From Candidatus Sumerlaeaceae bacterium (lineage in GTDB: Bacteria > Sumerlaeota > Sumerlaeia > Sumerlaeales > Sumerlaeaceae), in assembly GCA_019695055.1 (NCBI GenBank), contig JAIBAT010000083.1:1-64000 (forward strand): 64,000 nucleotides of DNA. The letters run 5' to 3'. Below are positions 3,579 through 27,454 of this stretch, piece by piece. Each line of letters opens with the position of its first letter. Positions within the stretch are counted from its first letter, which is position 1. The notes beneath the pieces are model-generated. The model saw only the letters and a list, made by a program, of their open reading frames with translations, was not told the DNA's origin and made no database searches. Position numbers and translations under genes: made by a program.

Positions 3579-4085
3579 TTATTTCACATAGATACGCGAA
3601 GCCTTGATGACAAGGTTGCCACTATCGTCTTTCTCAACCTTGCCTTCGGCCACCACCGTGATCAAATGGTCAATGGTCCCGACGCCTTTGAGTGATCCAG
3701 GTAGCGGAGCCGCACCATCACCCACCGCCTGCACCGTGGCCGTTGCCGCAGTCATGGCTTTAGGATCCTCGCAGCAGTAGTCCCAGGGAGTTTCACAACC
3801 TTCGCCACGCTGTTTGCAGTCCTTCATGCTCAGATCCACCAAGGTAATCACAGCCGCTCCCTCGACAAAATCCTTAACCTTCCCTTCGACCACCGCCTTA
3901 TCGCCGGTTTTCAAGTCCGCCTTCGCGGCCTTGACCCCAATCGCGGCCGGGGCTGGATCCTTCACCACGATTTTCGCGAGGGCCGGGTTTGCCGGGGCCT
4001 CCGGCGCTTTGGCTACTTCCGCCTTCTTATCGCCACAACCCGCAAACACCAGTGCAGCACCCACAACCATCAGCAATGCCTTCAT
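3579..4085 (-). CDS. Lipoprotein with OB-like region and Cys cluster
   Basis: A 168-residue lipoprotein: the lipobox VFAGC places the mature N-terminus at Cys16. A Pro/Ala-rich linker follows, then a beta-rich stretch (DKAVVEGKVKDFVEGAAVITLVD) that resembles an OB-fold. The middle has four cysteines in the segment from DCKQRGEGC to DYCCEDP, which could bind metal or form disulfides. I do not recognise a named family. It is the last gene of the operon that carries the cupredoxin-fused ABC exporter, 31 bases after a permease gene. A periplasmic metal-binding or accessory role is inferred only from the cysteines and this context. Confidence 0.7.
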   Translation of the reverse strand: MKALLMVVGAALVFAGCGDKKAEVAKAPEAPANPALAKIVVKDPAPAAIGVKAAKADLKTGDKAVVEGKVKDFVEGAAVITLVDLSMKDCKQRGEGCETPWDYCCEDPKAMTAATATVQAVGDGAAPLPGSLKGVGTIDHLITVVAEGKVEKDDSGNLVIKASRIYVK

Positions 4086-4116
4086 TTTTTCATCTCCTTT
4101 TCGCCGTACTAATTTA

Positions 4117-5298
4117 TTAACTTCTTAAAAGTTCAATCAACGGCGTGCGAATCAACCGCAAGGACGCTATCGCCGTCCCTCCCACTGCCAGCAGTAATGC
4201 CGTGCCAAATCCCACCGCCAGTACCAGCGCATCAACTTGTAATGACAGGGCCCCCATGACAAATCGAATTCCACGGCCATCCAGCAACAGTAAGGCAAGT
4301 CCCGCTGCAATCAGCGCGCCAGCACCCACCATCAGCAGCGATTCCTGGATCAGGCTGACAATAATTGCCCGCCGGCTGAACCCGATGGTCTCGAGGCACG
4401 CCAGTTCGCGTCCCCGCGCCACAATCACCGCGATCAAAGTATTAAGTCCGCCAAAAAGCCCGGCCACGGCCACCAGAGCCGCCATGACCCAACCCATGAC
4501 CTGCATCGGCCGGAAAAAGGAAGCGAGCGAACTGTAGAAGCGCGCCTCGCTCACCGCGGTGATTTCAAGATCCAGCTTGGAACTCGCGAAAACCTGCAAA
4601 GCCGTCAGGTCCGAAGGCGATTTCAGTCGTACAACCGCACAGGAAATCGTCTCGCGCTTAACTTGCGTCTTTAGTTCCTCCAATGGAACCCAAAGTTCGG
4701 CTTCAAAAGTCGTGCCCGGAGCTTCAAAAACTCCGCTAATAGTCCAGGCCCTTCCCTCAAAAAAGATTGTCTGACCCGGCTGTAATGCGGACTCCGGCAA
4801 ACCAAGCTTCGTAGCCGCCAGTTTGCCAGCCACGGCTTCGCCGGATCCGGGCAGCTTTCCTTCCTTCAGGTATATCTGACTGTGGAGTTGAAACGCCATC
4901 GGCGTCACACCACGAACCAGGCCCTTCCGCTGGTTTCCGGTATCGGGGTTCTCCGCGGAGGTCTGGCGAATCACAGCCGCGTGGACGATTTCCGGCGAGA
5001 CCATAGCCACTCCCTCCCGTTTGACAATGCTCTCGACCGATGCACCCAGGATGGAAGGGACATCCGCACGGATCTCCGATTGCTCCAGAAAATCCTCCGA
5101 CCCTTTCCCCAGCACGATGGCGTTGTTGTGGTCACCCGTCGCTCGCAGGGAAGAGGTCAGCGTTTGCACAAAGGCGCCCATAAGTATGACCAGAAAGATG
5201 ACCGCCGCGGCTCCCCCAGTAGTCAGAACCGTGCGCAGCCAGTTCCGCCCCGCATTCCGCGCTGCATAGTCGAAGGGAAGTAGTCGAAATGCCATCAC
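4117..5298 (-). CDS. FtsX-like ABC permease (MacB type), copper-linked operon
   Basis: A 393-residue FtsX/MacB-type permease with one helix near the N-terminus (TVLTTGGAAAVIFLVILMGAF), a large periplasmic domain (about residues 45-265) and three C-terminal helices. The region after the second helix (ARGRELACLETIGFSRRAIIVSLIQESL) is the usual cytoplasmic coupling segment of this family. The GTG start overlaps the stop of the upstream permease gene in GTGATG, so translation is coupled; the next codon is also ATG. With its neighbour it would form the two-permease core served by the ATPase-cupredoxin protein. Such systems work by mechanotransmission on periplasmic partners. The substrate cannot be read from the sequence. 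Confidence 0.88.
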   Translation of the reverse strand: MMAFRLLPFDYAARNAGRNWLRTVLTTGGAAAVIFLVILMGAFVQTLTSSLRATGDHNNAIVLGKGSEDFLEQSEIRADVPSILGASVESIVKREGVAMVSPEIVHAAVIRQTSAENPDTGNQRKGLVRGVTPMAFQLHSQIYLKEGKLPGSGEAVAGKLAATKLGLPESALQPGQTIFFEGRAWTISGVFEAPGTTFEAELWVPLEELKTQVKRETISCAVVRLKSPSDLTALQVFASSKLDLEITAVSEARFYSSLASFFRPMQVMGWVMAALVAVAGLFGGLNTLIAVIVARGRELACLETIGFSRRAIIVSLIQESLLMVGAGALIAAGLALLLLDGRGIRFVMGALSLQVDALVLAVGFGTALLLAVGGTAIASLRLIRTPLIELLRS

Positions 5299-21671: not shown

Positions 21672-24257
21672 TCAAAGCCTTGGGTCAACGGGTTCACTTT
21701 CGAGAGCCAGAACGCCAAATACGCATTCGTGAACACGTCTGAGCGGTTCGCGGCGGATGAACCGTTCCAGCGCCTCCGCACCAAGAGCAAATTCACGAAG
21801 GGCCAATGATCTCTTGGAGTGGATCGCACGGCGGCGCAAGCGTTCCAAGTTCTGCGGTTCTGTATAGTGAGGACCATAGATAATCCGGAGGTACTCCCGT
21901 CCCCTGCACTTCAGCGCTGGTTGCACCAGCCCTCGGCGGGCCCGTTCTACAAAACCCAGAGGCTTAACAACCATTCCCTCGCCCCCTTGGTTGGTCAGTT
22001 CCTCCCACCAGGAAGTGGCAGACTGTTCCTCATCCGGATTAGTAACATCGACGACTCGCCACGGCGTCTTGAGAAGCAGGGGCCCTGCGGATTTGTCCGC
22101 GTCACAGAATTGGGAAATGGTTTCCATATGCCAAATATGATCCTTATCCATATGGACGCGACCTTCGGTTGCCAACACATGGAAGGGTGCCAGCTTGTAA
22201 TCGGATAATGATTCGACTGGCCATGCGTACCTCTGGTACGCTTGAGTAAATTGCGCTGCCTCGACAAAGCGTGAATCTATGGACGAGCGGAAAGCTTCCC
22301 AGGAAGCGTCGCCTTCCGGCAGGTTCCGTGATGCGGCCACTTCTATTGCAGCGGCCGCACCTGATAGCCCCATTTGTGCGGCGGAACCAACGGCCGCATA
22401 CTGCGTGCGAATGAGTTCCTGGGCTTTTGCAGACCAGGGCATCAATTCACAATCAAGGCAGACCCAGTCGGTTTGGAATCGGTCCCAAAATCCCGATTCA
22501 GTCAAAGCTGCACACAGACCCTCGAAGAAATCTGTCTCCAATTTGGGATCATTGAAAAAACGCCTGCCAGTGCGGGTATAGCAGGCCCCCACCGCATCAT
22601 CGAGAATTCCGAATCGCTTTCTTGCCGATTCATTATCACGGCAGGCAACGACAATGGCCCGCGACCCCATGTGCTTTTCCTGGCAAACCACTCGCCCAAC
22701 ACCCTGAGTCCGGAAGTAAGCAAATGCCTCGGTTGGATACTCCAGATATCCGGGCTGAGTGGTCGTTTCCGAAGGAGACATGGTGGGCGGCAGGTGGATG
22801 AGCCATTTCGGATTAATGGCAAATCGGCTCATGGCCTCCAAGGCAGCGACAGCATTCTCCTCACGAATGGTCACCGTGCGATGGAGGCGCGTTTCAATGA
22901 TACGCTTCCCGATCACATCCTCAATGAACAATACATCATCCTGCTGTTGCTGTGCCGGGCGCTCCGCTGTTGCCTGATTGTATACCAGGGGCTTTTTCGG
23001 TTCAGCGTACATCCTAACCGCTGGAACCGACACGATCTCCTTTTCAGGATACCGTAAGGCCGAAAGCGCACCGCCAAACACGCACCCCGTGTCTATGTTG
23101 ATGGTGTTGTTGAGCCACTCCGGTTCGGGAACAGGAGTATGGCCGTAGACAACCACCGCAGATCCGCGATAGTCTGCCGCCCAATTATAACGGACAGGGA
23201 GCCCGAACTCATCCGTCTCTCCAGTGGTTTCGCCATAGAGGGCAAATTCGCGTACTCGTCCGGAACCCCGACCCTGCATCTCCTGTTTCAAACCGGCATG
23301 GGCTACAACAAGGCGGCCCTCATCCAGAACGTAATGGCTGACCAGATCGTCCAAAAAGTTCGCAACCCTGGATCGAAATTCGGGTGTTTCCCGGTCCAAC
23401 TGCTCGAGACTTTCGGCCAATCCATGGGTAATCTGGACATTCTTGCCGCGAAGCTTGCGCATCAATTTCACATCATGGTTGCCCGGCACACAGAGGGCGG
23501 TACCAGCCTCGACCATGTCCATTACCAGCTTCAATACACCGGGAACAAAAGGTCCACGGTCCACAAGGTCACCGACGAAAACCGCTTTCCGACCTTCGGG
23601 CGGCACAACATCATAGCCCGCGTTGTCCGGCTTCTCGGTCACCGCATATCCTAATTCGCCAAGTAGCGAGACCAGTTCCTCGAGGCAGCCGTGAACGTCC
23701 CCAATGATATCAAAGGGCCCGTGATCCGACTTGCGGTTATTCCAAAGTGGGTCGCGTTGGATGGTGGCCGCATCCACTTGTTCGGGCTTTTCAAAAATGA
23801 ACACATGACGAAACCCCTCGCGATCGAGTTTGCGAAGGTTTTGCCGTAAATTTCGCCGTTGCTGCGAAATGACGTGAGGCCCGAAATTGCGATCACTGCG
23901 CGCCACGTTTCTGTCCTGACATAGGCGTTCAGGCAGATTGAAAACAATGGCAACTGGCAGGCAGTGATAAGTGCGGGCGAGTTCAACGAGAGGCTTTCTG
24001 GCTTCGGGTTGGACGTTTGTCGCGTCAACGACCGTCAGTTTTCCGGCAGCAAGACGTTTCGCCGCAATGAAGTTAAGGACATCAAATGCGTCGGGGGTTG
24101 CCTCCTGGCTGTTCTCGTCGTTGGAAACAAGCCCTCGGCAGAAGTCGGACGATATAACTTCAAATCGTTGGAAATGAGTGGCCGCAAACGTGGATTTGCC
24201 ACTACCCGAAGGTCCTATCAGGACCACAAGTGCCAGCTCAGGAATCTTGATATTCAA
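21672..24257 (-). CDS. pnkp: Polynucleotide kinase-phosphatase-ligase (bacterial RNA repair Pnkp)
   Basis: An 861-residue, three-module RNA end-healing and sealing enzyme. Residues 1-175 are a polynucleotide kinase (GPSGSGKST at 15-23); 183-420 are a binuclear metallo-phosphoesterase (GDVHG 186-190, GDLVDRG 229-235, GNHD 259-262, VYGHTP 370-375); the rest is an adenylyltransferase with nucleotidyl-transfer motif KHMGS (Lys528). Length matches characterised Pnkp (about 850-870). It converts 2',3'-cyclic phosphate and 5'-OH ends into ligatable ends and, with Hen1, repairs RNA cut by ribotoxins. Its ATG overlaps the hen1 stop in ATGA, so the two are made together. Distinct from the host's housekeeping genes in this window, it looks like an accessory function. 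Confidence 0.96.
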   Translation of the reverse strand: MNIKIPELALVVLIGPSGSGKSTFAATHFQRFEVISSDFCRGLVSNDENSQEATPDAFDVLNFIAAKRLAAGKLTVVDATNVQPEARKPLVELARTYHCLPVAIVFNLPERLCQDRNVARSDRNFGPHVISQQRRNLRQNLRKLDREGFRHVFIFEKPEQVDAATIQRDPLWNNRKSDHGPFDIIGDVHGCLEELVSLLGELGYAVTEKPDNAGYDVVPPEGRKAVFVGDLVDRGPFVPGVLKLVMDMVEAGTALCVPGNHDVKLMRKLRGKNVQITHGLAESLEQLDRETPEFRSRVANFLDDLVSHYVLDEGRLVVAHAGLKQEMQGRGSGRVREFALYGETTGETDEFGLPVRYNWAADYRGSAVVVYGHTPVPEPEWLNNTINIDTGCVFGGALSALRYPEKEIVSVPAVRMYAEPKKPLVYNQATAERPAQQQQDDVLFIEDVIGKRIIETRLHRTVTIREENAVAALEAMSRFAINPKWLIHLPPTMSPSETTTQPGYLEYPTEAFAYFRTQGVGRVVCQEKHMGSRAIVVACRDNESARKRFGILDDAVGACYTRTGRRFFNDPKLETDFFEGLCAALTESGFWDRFQTDWVCLDCELMPWSAKAQELIRTQYAAVGSAAQMGLSGAAAAIEVAASRNLPEGDASWEAFRSSIDSRFVEAAQFTQAYQRYAWPVESLSDYKLAPFHVLATEGRVHMDKDHIWHMETISQFCDADKSAGPLLLKTPWRVVDVTNPDEEQSATSWWEELTNQGGEGMVVKPLGFVERARRGLVQPALKCRGREYLRIIYGPHYTEPQNLERLRRRAIHSKRSLALREFALGAEALERFIRREPLRRVHECVFGVLALESEPVDPRL

Positions 24258-25651
24258 AGGGTGAAAACCCCCATCTGTGTCGGCGCGCCGAGCGCCGGGT
24301 CCTCAGGCCCGACAGGGAGAAACCGAACCGAGTACCCGAACCGGGTGGCGATTCCGGCCGCCCACTCCTGAAATTCAGGGCGGGACCATTCGAATCGATG
24401 GTCCTTGTGACGCATAGTGCCGGCAGGAAGAGTGGGAAAGAGACTGTTATACTCCCGGTTCGGAGTAGTGACTACCACAGTTTGCGGGCGCGCAAAATCG
24501 AATAAGACCCGCTCGAATGCCGCAAGGCGCGGCGGGTCCAGATGTTCAATGACTTCCACCACAGCCGCGGCATCGTAACCGGAAAGCCGGTCATCACGAT
24601 ACATGAGCGACCCCTGAAACAGTTTTAATCGGTCGCGCTTCTGCGGAGGGAGCGTATCAAGATGAAGGTTGCGGACCGCCATCTGCAGGCTGCGGCTGGA
24701 CACATCCATCCCGGCAATCTCTTCGAAGGCCCTGTCCTCGAGGAACAGTCGGATCAGGCGTCCCTCCCCGCACCCCAGGTCCAGCACTCTTCGCGCATTG
24801 GCCGAACGAAAGACCGCCAGAGTAGCGTTTAACCGCTGTTGGTGCAGGCTGAGCGGAGCCTCCAACTTTTCTTCTTCTGTTCCGGCATTGGTTTCTTCGT
24901 CGGTTTCCTCCCCGTCCTCGGCAACCAATCTGGCCAACGCCGACCGCGTCAAACTGGTGCGGTGGCGAAGGTAGCGATTTACGATGAGTTCCTTGTCCGG
25001 GTGGGACGGCAACCAGGTGGACCCCTTGTCGAGCAGTTTATCGACCTCGTCCTCCCCAACCCAATAGTGTTTACCGTCGTCGAGAACAGGTATCAATACG
25101 TAGAGGTGTGACAACAACTCGGAAAGGCGATGGTGTCCGTGAAGCGTGACCTTAAAGCACCGCCCTCCACCCCACTCAGGAAATCTGGGGTCCAGCACTC
25201 CTGGTTCGCAATCCAGGGAGTAACCAAGTGGTTCAAATAGCCGTCGAAGTACGGGTTCTCCGCCTCGACACGGGAGCGCTGCCATGCAAACTTCCAGCGG
25301 CAGGGGCATGGATGCCAATTCAGGCCTGTCCTTGCTTCTGCCGCCCAGCGCAGTCCCAAAAACCTTTAACAAGGCCACGCTCATCAGCGATGATGCAACA
25401 TACGGACGGTCGTTAACGTATTGATCAAGCAGGCCCCCTTCTCCGGAACTTCCCGGCTTGCCACGCACCAAACCAACCGGGTCGACATCAAGAACGAGAG
25501 CCGCAGTACACAAATCCTCTGTCGCCACCGGATAAAAGACGTGGGCATGGCCAAACGGCATCTCGAAACTGTGCACACGCGCCGGATTCTTGTGGAGCAG
25601 GTAGCCCAGGTCAGTTGCCGGGGAATGGGTTGTGGATATGGTAAGGAGCAT
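24254..25651 (-). CDS. hen1: RNA 3'-terminal ribose 2'-O-methyltransferase Hen1
   Basis: A 465-residue bacterial Hen1. The N-terminal half (about 1-270) is the ligase-activating domain that pairs with Pnkp, with the typical start MLLTISTTHSPATDLGYLLH. The C-terminal half is a SAM-dependent methyltransferase: SAM motif DLGCGEG (291-297), metal ligands in EVIEH (E366, E369, H370) and H418 in MRHKDHRF, all as in characterised Hen1 enzymes. It methylates the 2'-OH at the break site before sealing, which makes the repaired RNA resistant to renewed cleavage at that site. An acidic linker (EDGEETDEETNAGTEEE) joins the halves. First gene of the two-gene RNA-repair cassette. Confidence 0.96.
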   Translation of the reverse strand: MLLTISTTHSPATDLGYLLHKNPARVHSFEMPFGHAHVFYPVATEDLCTAALVLDVDPVGLVRGKPGSSGEGGLLDQYVNDRPYVASSLMSVALLKVFGTALGGRSKDRPELASMPLPLEVCMAALPCRGGEPVLRRLFEPLGYSLDCEPGVLDPRFPEWGGGRCFKVTLHGHHRLSELLSHLYVLIPVLDDGKHYWVGEDEVDKLLDKGSTWLPSHPDKELIVNRYLRHRTSLTRSALARLVAEDGEETDEETNAGTEEEKLEAPLSLHQQRLNATLAVFRSANARRVLDLGCGEGRLIRLFLEDRAFEEIAGMDVSSRSLQMAVRNLHLDTLPPQKRDRLKLFQGSLMYRDDRLSGYDAAAVVEVIEHLDPPRLAAFERVLFDFARPQTVVVTTPNREYNSLFPTLPAGTMRHKDHRFEWSRPEFQEWAAGIATRFGYSVRFLPVGPEDPALGAPTQMGVFTL

Positions 25652-25749: not shown

Positions 25750-26064
25750 CTATTCGGTTTCAGCTGGCCGAATATTAAACCTCCCATCCGCATTGTCGAT
25801 TTCAACGCGACACCCCTCATAGAGCCCCAGCTTCTCGGCCAGCCAGTCCGGGATCCGAATCACCAGCAATTCGCCCTCTACACTCGCAATGCTGCGGGTA
25901 CAGTCGACCAAATTGTTTCCACCAACCTCCAATGGAATCCGTAGCACATACTTGTCATTGACACGTTCAATGGGCCCTTCGAGAAAGACAATCTGTTCCG
26001 GATCCTGCCGAGGTCGAACCCCGCCATCCCTCTTTTTGCCCCATAAGTTTCCAAAGAAGCCCAT
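25750..26064 (-). CDS. Small protein with AbrB/MazE-like C-terminus
   Basis: A 104-residue protein. The N-terminus is basic and hydrophobic (MGFFGNLWGKKRDGG); the C-terminal part (ELLVIRIPDWLAEKLGLYEGCRVEIDNADG) follows the swapped-hairpin AbrB/MazE/SpoVT pattern of small DNA-binding proteins and antitoxins. I choose the ATG at 26064; upstream in-frame ATGs give a longer, featureless N-terminus, and no start has a strong ribosome site. It lies 98 bases upstream of hen1 on the same strand and could be co-transcribed or regulate the RNA-repair genes. The WGKK start also resembles that of the protein ending at 27536 (MGLLGSLFGKKK), so it might instead be a membrane-edge protein. Function is uncertain. 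Confidence 0.55.
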   Translation of the reverse strand: MGFFGNLWGKKRDGGVRPRQDPEQIVFLEGPIERVNDKYVLRIPLEVGGNNLVDCTRSIASVEGELLVIRIPDWLAEKLGLYEGCRVEIDNADGRFNIRPAETE

Positions 26065-26274
26065 GATAGGATTTGGTTTAACGCGCAACTCCCTACTTAT
26101 TGTCCCAAGGAACTCGGGACAGATAAAAATTTTCCGGGTAATTCTCAGAAATTCCACTGGCATGCTTGATAGCCTCGCAGCGTTCGTTCAACACGAGGGC
26201 CGGTACTTGGTGTTTCGCCCCCTCTTCAAGTTTTTCCGTGACACTCCGGGAGCAATCCTCAAGGTGCCCCTGAA

Positions 26275-26622
26275 ATGAAGCTCCCACTGTTTGAAATCGC
26301 CACCGTGGATCAAGAAAAGGTTGTGGGATACCTCATGAATCCGTCCCATCGCTATGGTGCGAGCAAGTCACGCTTCTTTGCAGAATTCGGATTCTCGCGG
26401 AACAACTGGCAGGCCCTTGCCCGGGCACTGCAGGGTCACGCGGCGACTCACGAAGTGGCGAGGCTGCGTCAAACGCCCTTTGGCACTCGATACGAAATTG
26501 ATGGAACATTGGCCTCTCCGGACGGTAGAAATCCACGAGTACGCACGATATGGCAATGGGACGGAAAATCTCCGGCTCCACGGCTCATAACGGCTCATCC
26601 TTTGGAGGCAGTGACGTCATGA
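26275..26622 (+). CDS. DUF6883-family protein
   Basis: A 115-residue protein. The N-terminal block KLPLFEIATVDQEKVVGYLMNPSHRYGASKSRFF, in its order of residues, and the C-terminal pattern FGTRYEIDGTLASPDGRNPRVRTIW ending in PRLITAHP match what I recall of DUF6883. It has no signal peptide. AAGG lies about 10 bases before the ATG. The stop overlaps the start of the DUF4926 gene in ATGA, so both are made together. These two families are often neighbours, and DUF6883 domains also occur at the ends of polymorphic toxin proteins, so the pair may behave like a toxin-antitoxin or toxin-immunity unit. That is inference; no catalytic residues are established. Confidence 0.7.
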   Translation: MKLPLFEIATVDQEKVVGYLMNPSHRYGASKSRFFAEFGFSRNNWQALARALQGHAATHEVARLRQTPFGTRYEIDGTLASPDGRNPRVRTIWQWDGKSPAPRLITAHPLEAVTS

Positions 26623-26849
26623 TAAAGGAACACGACATGGTTGTCCTCACCGAGGGGCTTCCGGAGGACAGGCTGACAGCCGGAGACGTGGGCACAGTCG
26701 TTCAGGTCTATCAGGGGGGGGCAGGGTACGAAGTGGAGTTTATGACTCTCGCCGGCCGCACTGTGGCCGTGGCAACAGTAACAGCCTCCCAAATTCGCGC
26801 CGTTAATCCCAGCGACCTCGTTCATGTTCGGGAAATGCAAACGGCGTAG
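26619..26849 (+). CDS. DUF4926-family protein
   Basis: A 76-residue protein of the DUF4926 type, with the pattern MIKEHDMVVLTEGLPEDRL, then AGDVGTVVQVYQGGAGYEVEF and GRTVAVATV. It resembles a small SH3-like barrel. GGAGG lies 9 bases before the ATG at 26619, which overlaps the DUF6883 stop codon by four bases. The pairing and the smaller, acidic second protein suggest a partner or antitoxin role for it, which the sequence does not prove. A strong hairpin follows 41 bases after the stop. Confidence 0.75.
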   Translation: MIKEHDMVVLTEGLPEDRLTAGDVGTVVQVYQGGAGYEVEFMTLAGRTVAVATVTASQIRAVNPSDLVHVREMQTA

Positions 26850-26889: not shown

Positions 26890-26932
26890 GTCGGGACAGC
26901 CAAAACTTAAAACAACTTTTGGCTTTCCCGAC
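26890..26932. terminator. Long-stem hairpin between convergent genes, likely bidirectional terminator
   Basis: The arms GTCGGGA-c-AGCCAAAA (26890-26905) and TTTTGGCT-t-TCCCGAC (26917-26932) pair over 15 of 16 positions, with one mismatch and an 11-base loop. It lies exactly between the DUF4926 gene and the stop codon of the convergent membrane protein gene. A·T pairs sit next to the loop rather than in a T tail. Confidence 0.6.
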
Positions 26933-27454
26933 CTATCCGCCTGCCGGGCCGATGGCGGGCGGTTTGTTGGACCGATGTGACAGCTTCCTGCCGACAAATA
27001 AAACGACGCCGTACACCATGACGCAGATGACGGTGTAAACAAGCGCAAGACTGAAGCAGTGAAGCAGGAAGGGCACCTGAAACACCTGGCCCCAATGGAA
27101 ACCATAACCCTTGCGGTACATCCACAGATACTTGTCCACCTGCACTGCCAGAAACCACTGGATGGCAAGGGCAACATGGAATGGAACAAGCAACACCATG
27201 ACGCCCCGTAAAATGGGGAAACGGCGGCGCTGCATCAGGACAGCCAGCGCCACCATGACCGCGGGCGCGGTAAACAGACAGAAGCGATAAGGAATGCCGT
27301 AGGGAAAAGCCGGAAGCCGGATGATCAAAGGCTCATACTCACCGGAGAGGACAGAGACCGGGTGGGTGACCCGATCAAGAAGCGGGAAGAACAGCACGAA
27401 CAGCAAACCGCACCCGATGACAATCAGGAAAACCCCAAGCTGTGCTATTCTCAT
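26933..27454 (-). CDS. Small integral membrane protein, unknown
   Basis: A 173-residue protein with four predicted helices: residues about 4-24 (LGVFLIVIGCGLLFVLFFPLL is the first), 58-74, 83-103 and 128-152. Between helices 1 and 2 is a loop of about 30 residues (SGEYEPLIIRLPAFPYGIPYRF). I recognise no family or catalytic motif. It is a single gene, convergent with the DUF4926 gene and 80 bases from the next minus-strand gene upstream. Nothing in context fixes a role. Confidence 0.65.
   Translation of the reverse strand: MRIAQLGVFLIVIGCGLLFVLFFPLLDRVTHPVSVLSGEYEPLIIRLPAFPYGIPYRFCLFTAPAVMVALAVLMQRRRFPILRGVMVLLVPFHVALAIQWFLAVQVDKYLWMYRKGYGFHWGQVFQVPFLLHCFSLALVYTVICVMVYGVVLFVGRKLSHRSNKPPAIGPAGG

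What the first reader, a model, noticed from the sequence alone, without database searches (positions are those of the whole stretch)
25750..26849. AbrB-like gene plus DUF6883/DUF4926 pair beside the RNA-repair genes
Three small, compact genes lie immediately upstream of an RNA-repair cassette. The DUF6883 and DUF4926 genes overlap by four bases, as toxin-antitoxin partners often do. A ribonuclease-like toxin, antitoxin and repair system in one place would make sense, with the AbrB/MazE-like protein as regulator. No toxin activity is proven.
Basis: inference. Interest (0 to 1): 0.7.

Follow-up and report, generated by a model that had tools for sequence, protein, structure and literature searches.

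The report
Probable tRNA-cutting toxin with its antitoxin
Two small overlapping genes look like a mobile poison-and-antidote pair, the poison probably an enzyme that cuts RNA; similar pairs occur in many bacteria, and its position beside RNA-repair genes here looks like chance.

Summary
The two DUF genes are real. 26275-26622(+) is DUF6883 and 26619-26849(+) is DUF4926, joined by an ATGA overlap. Full-length hen1 and pnkp lie nearby on the opposite strand. The AbrB-like call is weak: it is below every curated cut-off and has no homologue in the 40 genomes of its phylum that are held.

The toxin-antitoxin reading is well supported. All 71 stand-alone DUF6883 loci examined have a DUF4926 domain next to them, whereas DUF4926 often occurs alone (15 of 36 loci). 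Pairs sit on plasmids and in viral contigs, and cyanobacteria carry up to nine DUF6883 copies. DUF6883 also caps a phage minor capsid protein, and DUF4926 can be fused to the end of a restriction-enzyme-like protein. AlphaFold gives DUF6883 (pLDDT 93.5) a helical segment plus a four-stranded sheet. The only significant PDB matches are the chains of CdiA-CT Kp342, a BECR-fold tRNase. Its Lys-Tyr-Thr catalytic residues have counterparts in conserved DUF6883 positions. DUF4926 is an SH3/KOW-like barrel.

The link to RNA repair is not supported. None of 80 hen1 loci has either DUF or the AbrB-like gene within the flanks held (up to 8 kb). In 50 hen1-bearing genomes, 11 carry DUF6883, but the nearest copy is 39 kb away. 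Toxicity and RNase activity are untested.

The parts
26275..26622 (+). DUF6883 gene, 115 aa: predicted BECR-fold ribonuclease toxin. Candidate catalytic residues K15, Y19, T106 with R103 and H25/K31, all present.
   Evidence: Pfam PF21814 E=8.8e-33; AlphaFold2 pLDDT 93.5, three helices plus four strands; Foldseek top four hits are the 6cp9 CdiA-CT chains; conservation in 48 sequences.
26619..26849 (+). DUF4926 gene, 76 aa: predicted SH3/KOW-like antitoxin, ATGA overlap with DUF6883.
   Evidence: Pfam PF16277 E=5.7e-21; AlphaFold2 pLDDT 83.4, beta barrel; Foldseek best hits NusG KOW domains, E 1.5e-3 and weaker; adjacent to every stand-alone DUF6883 examined.
26604..26608 (+). GGAGG, candidate ribosome-binding site of the DUF4926 gene, inside the DUF6883 gene, 10 nt before its ATG
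   Evidence: Read from the sequence; inference only.
25750..26064 (-). AbrB/MazE-like gene, about 104 aa from ATG 26064 (longer ORF to 26163), divergent from the DUF pair; probably not part of the module.
   Evidence: Sub-threshold MazE and AbrB matches at the C-terminus; no homologues in phylum; start judged from base periodicity.
24254..25651 (-). hen1, 3'-terminal RNA ribose 2'-O-methyltransferase (neighbour, not shown to belong to the module)
   Evidence: TIGR04074 E=3.9e-213 and Hen1_L PF12623 E=2.1e-109.
21672..24257 (-). pnkp, kinase-phosphatase-ligase of the bacterial RNA-repair complex (neighbour)
   Evidence: TIGR04075, 1425 bits over the full length; overlaps hen1 by 4 bases.

Best explanation
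DUF6883-DUF4926 is a mobile, type II-like toxin-antitoxin module. DUF6883 is a small ribonuclease of the BECR fold, most like the CdiA-CT toxin domain of Klebsiella pneumoniae 342, and probably cuts tRNA with a Lys-Tyr-Thr active site (K15, Y19, T106, helped by R103 and H25/K31). DUF4926 is an SH3/KOW-like protein translated with the toxin through the ATGA overlap; it binds and blocks it. The pair is unrelated in function to the AbrB-like gene and to hen1/pnkp, beside which it sits by chance or through shared residence in an acquired island. Shown: the genes, the obligate pairing, the mobility and the orphan asymmetry. Predicted: the folds. Inferred: toxicity, RNase activity, target and neutralisation.
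For: Pairing: 71 of 71 stand-alone DUF6883 loci have DUF4926 (65 directly downstream, 3 directly upstream, 3 as the end of the preceding restriction-enzyme-like gene); 16 of the 60 pairs with a clear start codon have the same 4-base overlap. Polarity: DUF6883 without DUF4926 is seen only as a domain of 463-511 aa proteins (4 cases), whereas 15 of 36 DUF4926 loci lack DUF6883 (Fisher p about 1e-8 for unpaired DUF4926 against stand-alone DUF6883, not corrected for relatedness). Mobility: plasmids of Nitrosococcus, Thermus, Nostoc, Meiothermus, Rubrobacter, Stanieria, Gloeothece, Pseudanabaena and Methylobacterium, viral contigs, up to 9 DUF6883 copies per cyanobacterial genome. Effector-like use: C-terminal DUF6883 on a Phage_Mu_F minor capsid protein. 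Fold: pLDDT 93.5; only 6cp9 chains score E<=0.001 in the PDB, TM 0.61-0.71, next TM 0.36. That fold matches the published BECR definition, an N-terminal helical segment then a 4-stranded meander (PMC3482391). K15, Y19 and K31 are invariant in 48/48 sequences, T/S106 in 46/48 and R/K103 in 40/48; Kp342 uses a Lys-Tyr-Thr triad plus His and Arg (PMC9086364).
Against: No experiment on either family was found in the open-access library (no paper names DUF6883, one mentions DUF4926 in passing). Sequence comparison with 6cp9 is not significant: E=0.02 with one profile, absent with two others. The mapping of catalytic residues rests on pattern and spacing, not on a superposition. R103 and H25 are not universal in the family. 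Many loci are close relatives, so the pairing count is not 71 independent events, and the 30 cyanobacterial loci were the best-scoring ones.
Confidence: 0.72

Rival explanations
1. One reading: toxin, antitoxin and RNA repair form one system, in which DUF6883 cuts RNA and Hen1-Pnkp reseals and 2'-O-methylates the ends, with the AbrB-like protein regulating it.
For: The genes lie within 5.2 kb. BECR toxins of the Kp342/colicin D kind cut tRNA, and Pnkp-Hen1-type complexes repair ribotoxin-cleaved tRNA in vitro (PMC4411300), so the chemistry would fit. All five genes have third-position GC of about 0.54-0.65 (pnkp 0.57, DUF4926 0.65), at the low end of the window, as an acquired block might.
Against: 0 of 80 hen1 loci carry DUF6883, DUF4926 or the AbrB-like gene in about 1.0 Mb of flank (95% upper bound 3.7%). 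11 of 50 hen1-bearing genomes have DUF6883, 29 copies in all, none closer than 39 kb. In 291 cyanobacteria DUF6883 is in 73 and Hen1 in 10, both in 4, Fisher p=0.28 and never adjacent. Opposite strands.
Confidence: 0.07
2. The pair is a toxin-antitoxin module, but DUF6883 acts by a non-nuclease mechanism (for example binding EF-Tu, the ribosome or gyrase), the BECR-like fold being reused as in ParE.
For: BECR-fold relatives include the non-nuclease ParE (PMC9086364). No sequence-level match to a proven nuclease holds up.
Against: Conserved Lys, Tyr and Thr/Ser with a basic residue match the Kp342/EC3006 catalytic set. The closest solved structure by far is a tRNase.
Confidence: 0.15
3. The pair is an ordinary housekeeping or metabolic two-gene unit, not a toxin-antitoxin.
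For: Neither protein has a measured activity; the curated names are only 'domain of unknown function'.
Against: Patchy distribution (4 of 40 genomes in its phylum), plasmid and viral carriage, many copies per genome, orphan asymmetry, and fusion to phage capsid and restriction-enzyme-like proteins.
Confidence: 0.06

Closest known systems
CdiA-CT/CdiI of Klebsiella pneumoniae 342 (PDB 6CP9), BECR-fold tRNase
   Same: Predicted fold, and a Lys/Tyr/Thr plus Arg residue pattern; the best PDB match of DUF6883. Its immunity protein is also almost all beta (PMC9086364).
   Different: DUF6883 here is a stand-alone 115-aa intracellular protein without a delivery module; sequence identity in the Foldseek alignments is only 14-17%. 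DUF4926 was not shown to be related to CdiI-Kp342; its best structural hits are KOW/SH3 barrels.
RelE/BrnT-type toxin-antitoxin systems (BECR-fold toxins)
   Same: Two small overlapping genes, a BECR-type toxin, plasmid carriage, many copies.
   Different: Toxin gene first; the antitoxin is an SH3-like barrel with no recognised DNA-binding domain. RelE and HigB2 structures appear only as weak Foldseek hits (E 0.26-0.34).
MuF-type phage polymorphic toxins
   Same: The same DUF6883 domain is found at the C-terminus of a Phage_Mu_F minor capsid protein (L148) and of a 463-aa protein in a viral contig (L145).
   Different: Those have no DUF4926; the window gene is not fused.
Pnkp-Hen1 bacterial RNA-repair operon
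   Same: The neighbouring operon is a complete, ordinary member; pnkp and hen1 are reported always to be in one operon (PMC4411300).
   Different: The DUF pair is not a conserved neighbour of it.

Membership tests
Type II toxin-antitoxin systems | Two small, adjacent, co-directional genes that always occur together | tested here: met
   71 of 71 stand-alone DUF6883 loci paired with DUF4926
Type II toxin-antitoxin systems | Antitoxin may be orphaned, toxin not | tested here: met
   15 of 36 DUF4926 loci without DUF6883; stand-alone DUF6883 never without DUF4926
Type II toxin-antitoxin systems | Mobile, multicopy, patchy distribution | tested here: met
   Plasmids and viral contigs; up to 9 copies per genome; 4 of 40 genomes in its phylum
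Type II toxin-antitoxin systems | Toxicity of one protein, neutralised by direct binding of the other | not testable with these tools
   Needs expression and pull-down experiments
BECR-fold ribonucleases | N-terminal helical segment followed by a 4-stranded meander | tested here: met
   AlphaFold2 model: H13-20, H29-37, H42-58, E61-67, E70-78, E88-95, E103-109, pLDDT 93.5; definition from PMC3482391
BECR-fold ribonucleases | Structural similarity to a solved member | tested here: met
   6cp9 chains, E 1.8e-4 to 5e-4, TM 0.61-0.71
BECR-fold ribonucleases | Significant sequence similarity to a solved member | tested here: inconclusive
   6cp9 E=0.02 with one profile, not found with two others or with the single sequence
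BECR-fold ribonucleases | Catalytic Lys-Tyr-Thr set as in Kp342/EC3006 | tested here: inconclusive
BECR-fold ribonucleases | RNA cleavage | not testable with these tools
   Needs biochemistry
SpoVT/AbrB (MazE-like) regulators, for 25750-26064 | Domain match above the curated cut-off | tested here: not met
   MazE 14.5 bits against 24.7; AbrB 13.2 against 28.3
Component of the Pnkp-Hen1 repair cassette, for the DUF pair | Conserved linkage to hen1/pnkp | tested here: not met
   0 of 80 hen1 loci; 0 of 50 hen1-bearing genomes within 30 kb on one contig

The most novel reading that the evidence does not exclude
In this one lineage a DUF6883 tRNase has come under the guard of Hen1-Pnkp: the cell's own toxin cuts tRNA, the repair complex reseals the ends and 2'-O-methylates them so that they cannot be cut again, giving a reversible, self-limiting growth arrest with DUF4926 as first and RNA repair as second safeguard.
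Probability: 0.06. Interest if true: 0.8.

Novelty: new member of a known kind. Interest (0 to 1): 0.45.

Why it matters
DUF6883 and DUF4926 are widespread names without a function. The evidence gives both a testable role: a tRNase-like toxin family and its SH3-like antitoxin. It names candidate catalytic residues and shows the same toxin domain in phage capsid proteins and the antitoxin domain fused to restriction-enzyme-like proteins. It also removes a tempting but unsupported link between these genes and bacterial RNA repair, whose natural substrates remain unknown.

Tried and rejected
Functional link to hen1/pnkp: rejected as a general feature. A conserved third gene beside hen1-pnkp: clustering of flanking ORFs gave, among the largest clusters, only ones confined to related Poribacteria. 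AbrB-like as regulator: no homologue in the phylum, none near other DUF6883 or hen1 loci. Sequence profile match to CdiA 6cp9 as stand-alone proof: dropped because it vanished with larger alignments and chance matches to eIF3d scored similarly. PHROGs and PADLOC gave nothing for the three small proteins, and the GenBank phage collection had no match. Promoter and terminator scans and repeats around the locus gave nothing convincing: one terminator-like stem at 26937-26962 against 2.2 expected by chance. Rfam found no RNA in 20-34 kb. Literature: no paper naming DUF6883, one passing mention of DUF4926.

Full report
What is there. The window carries, on the minus strand, pnkp (21672-24257) and hen1 (24254-25651), both full length and overlapping by four bases. 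Upstream of hen1, also on the minus strand, lies a small gene (25750-26163, probably starting at 26064). Diverging from it on the plus strand are DUF6883 (26275-26622; PF21814 E=8.8e-33) and DUF4926 (26619-26849; PF16277 E=5.7e-21), which share the sequence ATGA at 26619-26622. A GGAGG lies 10 nt before the DUF4926 ATG, inside DUF6883. The pair, however, is not co-directional with them, and the 'AbrB-like' label rests on C-terminal matches below the curated cut-offs of both Pfam and NCBIfam. That gene has no homologue in the 40 held genomes of its phylum.

Is the DUF pair more than chance? I collected DUF6883 loci from the phylum, from plasmids, from 291 cyanobacterial genomes and from viral contigs. 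Profiles built from these loci were then run over them. Of 75 loci, 71 have a stand-alone DUF6883 gene and every one has DUF4926: 65 directly downstream, 3 directly upstream (Methylobacterium), and 3 where a DUF4926-like domain is the last domain of the preceding restriction-enzyme-like gene. For one of those three (L147, viral contig) Pfam itself sees ResIII at the N-terminus and DUF4926 at residues 921-957 (E=9e-6, below its cut-off). In the other two (Rhizobiales, BPTD_3080 family) the match is weak (E=0.013). Among 60 pairs with a clear start codon, 16 have the same four-base overlap as the window.

Which is the toxin? The four DUF6883 domains without DUF4926 are all parts of 463-511 aa proteins, including a Phage_Mu_F minor capsid protein in an Anoxybacillus prophage region. 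That is the architecture of an injected effector. DUF4926, by contrast, is often alone. In an unselected look at the window's phylum and 201 Chloroflexota-like genomes, 15 of 36 DUF4926 loci had no DUF6883. The window's own genome holds an 84%-identical DUF4926 paralogue behind a DUF433-like ORF and a DUF5615 PIN-like gene (L161). Antitoxins can be orphaned and toxins cannot, so DUF6883 is the likely toxin and DUF4926 the antitoxin.

What would the toxin do? AlphaFold2, given the window protein and eleven viral relatives, returned a model with mean pLDDT 93.5: three helices followed by four strands. This is the published definition of the BECR fold, an N-terminal helical segment followed by a 4-stranded meander (PMC3482391). 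Foldseek against the PDB found only four chains with E<=0.001, all of them the CdiA-CT/CdiI entry of K. pneumoniae 342 (6cp9), TM 0.61-0.71; the next hit has TM 0.36. That toxin is a tRNase with a Lys-Tyr-Thr triad plus a histidine and an arginine (PMC9086364). In 48 DUF6883 sequences K15, Y19 and K31 are invariant, position 106 is T or S in 46, position 103 is R or K in 40 and H25 is present in 38. All are present in the window protein. The match by sequence alone is not significant, so the ribonuclease assignment rests on the predicted fold and the residue pattern. DUF4926 is modelled as a small SH3/KOW-like barrel (pLDDT 83; best Foldseek hits NusG, E 1.5e-3 and weaker).

Is it linked to RNA repair? 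Three tests say no. First, 80 hen1 loci from many phyla, with about 1.0 Mb of flanking DNA in total, contain no DUF6883, DUF4926 or AbrB-like relative; 74 of the 80 have pnkp within 1.5 kb. Second, of 50 hen1-bearing genomes 11 carry DUF6883, with 29 copies, and only one copy is on the same contig as hen1, 39 kb away. Third, among 291 cyanobacteria DUF6883 is in 73 genomes and Hen1 in 10, both in 4 (Fisher p=0.28), and never close together. In the window's own phylum the only other genome with both has them on different contigs. No hen1 or pnkp lies in the flanks of the other DUF6883 loci. The low third-position GC of pnkp, hen1 and the three small genes (about 0.54-0.65 against up to 0.91 nearby) would fit an acquired block, which could explain the neighbourhood without a shared function. 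It is not decisive, because other genes in the window have values nearly as low.

Best explanation. A mobile toxin-antitoxin module: DUF6883 is a BECR-fold, probably tRNA-cutting toxin and DUF4926 its antitoxin, here beside an ordinary Pnkp-Hen1 operon by coincidence. Shown: genes, pairing, mobility, orphan asymmetry, absence of linkage. Predicted: folds. Inferred: toxicity, RNA cleavage, target, neutralisation.

Novelty. No paper in the open-access library names DUF6883 and one mentions DUF4926 in passing; subscription journals were not searchable, so an earlier description cannot be excluded. As a kind of system, toxin-antitoxin with a BECR toxin, it is known; as a family it appears uncharacterised. 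The fused variants (toxin domain on a phage capsid protein, antitoxin domain on a restriction-enzyme-like protein) are the most unusual points and lie outside the window.

Noticed in passing
L147:3-3303, L092:1-2812, L095:1-2812: A restriction-enzyme-like gene (ResIII in L147; BPTD_3080 family in the Rhizobiales plasmids) ends in a DUF4926-like domain and is followed directly by DUF6883: an antitoxin apparently fused to a restriction enzyme, so that loss or inhibition of the enzyme might release the toxin.
   Followed up: partly
L148:1942-3378 (Anoxybacillus plasmid prophage region), L145:1951-3339 (viral contig): DUF6883 as the C-terminal domain of a Phage_Mu_F minor capsid protein and of a 463-aa protein in a viral contig, without DUF4926, suggesting delivery with the phage particle.
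   Followed up: partly
L161:800-1722 (G000 contig C56, the window's own genome): A DUF433-like ORF and a DUF5615 PIN-like gene (a known toxin-antitoxin type) followed by a DUF4926 paralogue 84% identical to the window's, with no DUF6883: an orphan or recruited antitoxin.
   Followed up: partly
window:21672-26849: pnkp, hen1, the AbrB-like gene and the DUF pair have third-position GC of about 0.54-0.65, at the low end of the window (neighbours up to 0.91); possibly an acquired block.
   Followed up: partly
window:26114-26131 and 26891-26908: An imperfect direct repeat (TCGGGACAG...) of 18 nt, 83% identical, lies on either side of the DUF pair; it may be chance.
   Followed up: no
L149:2209-3696 and 4033-4548: A Streptomyces plasmid protein of 495 aa with an internal DUF6883 domain lies near a SMI1/KNR4 (SUKH) gene, a usual immunity family, on the opposite strand, instead of DUF4926.
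   Followed up: no
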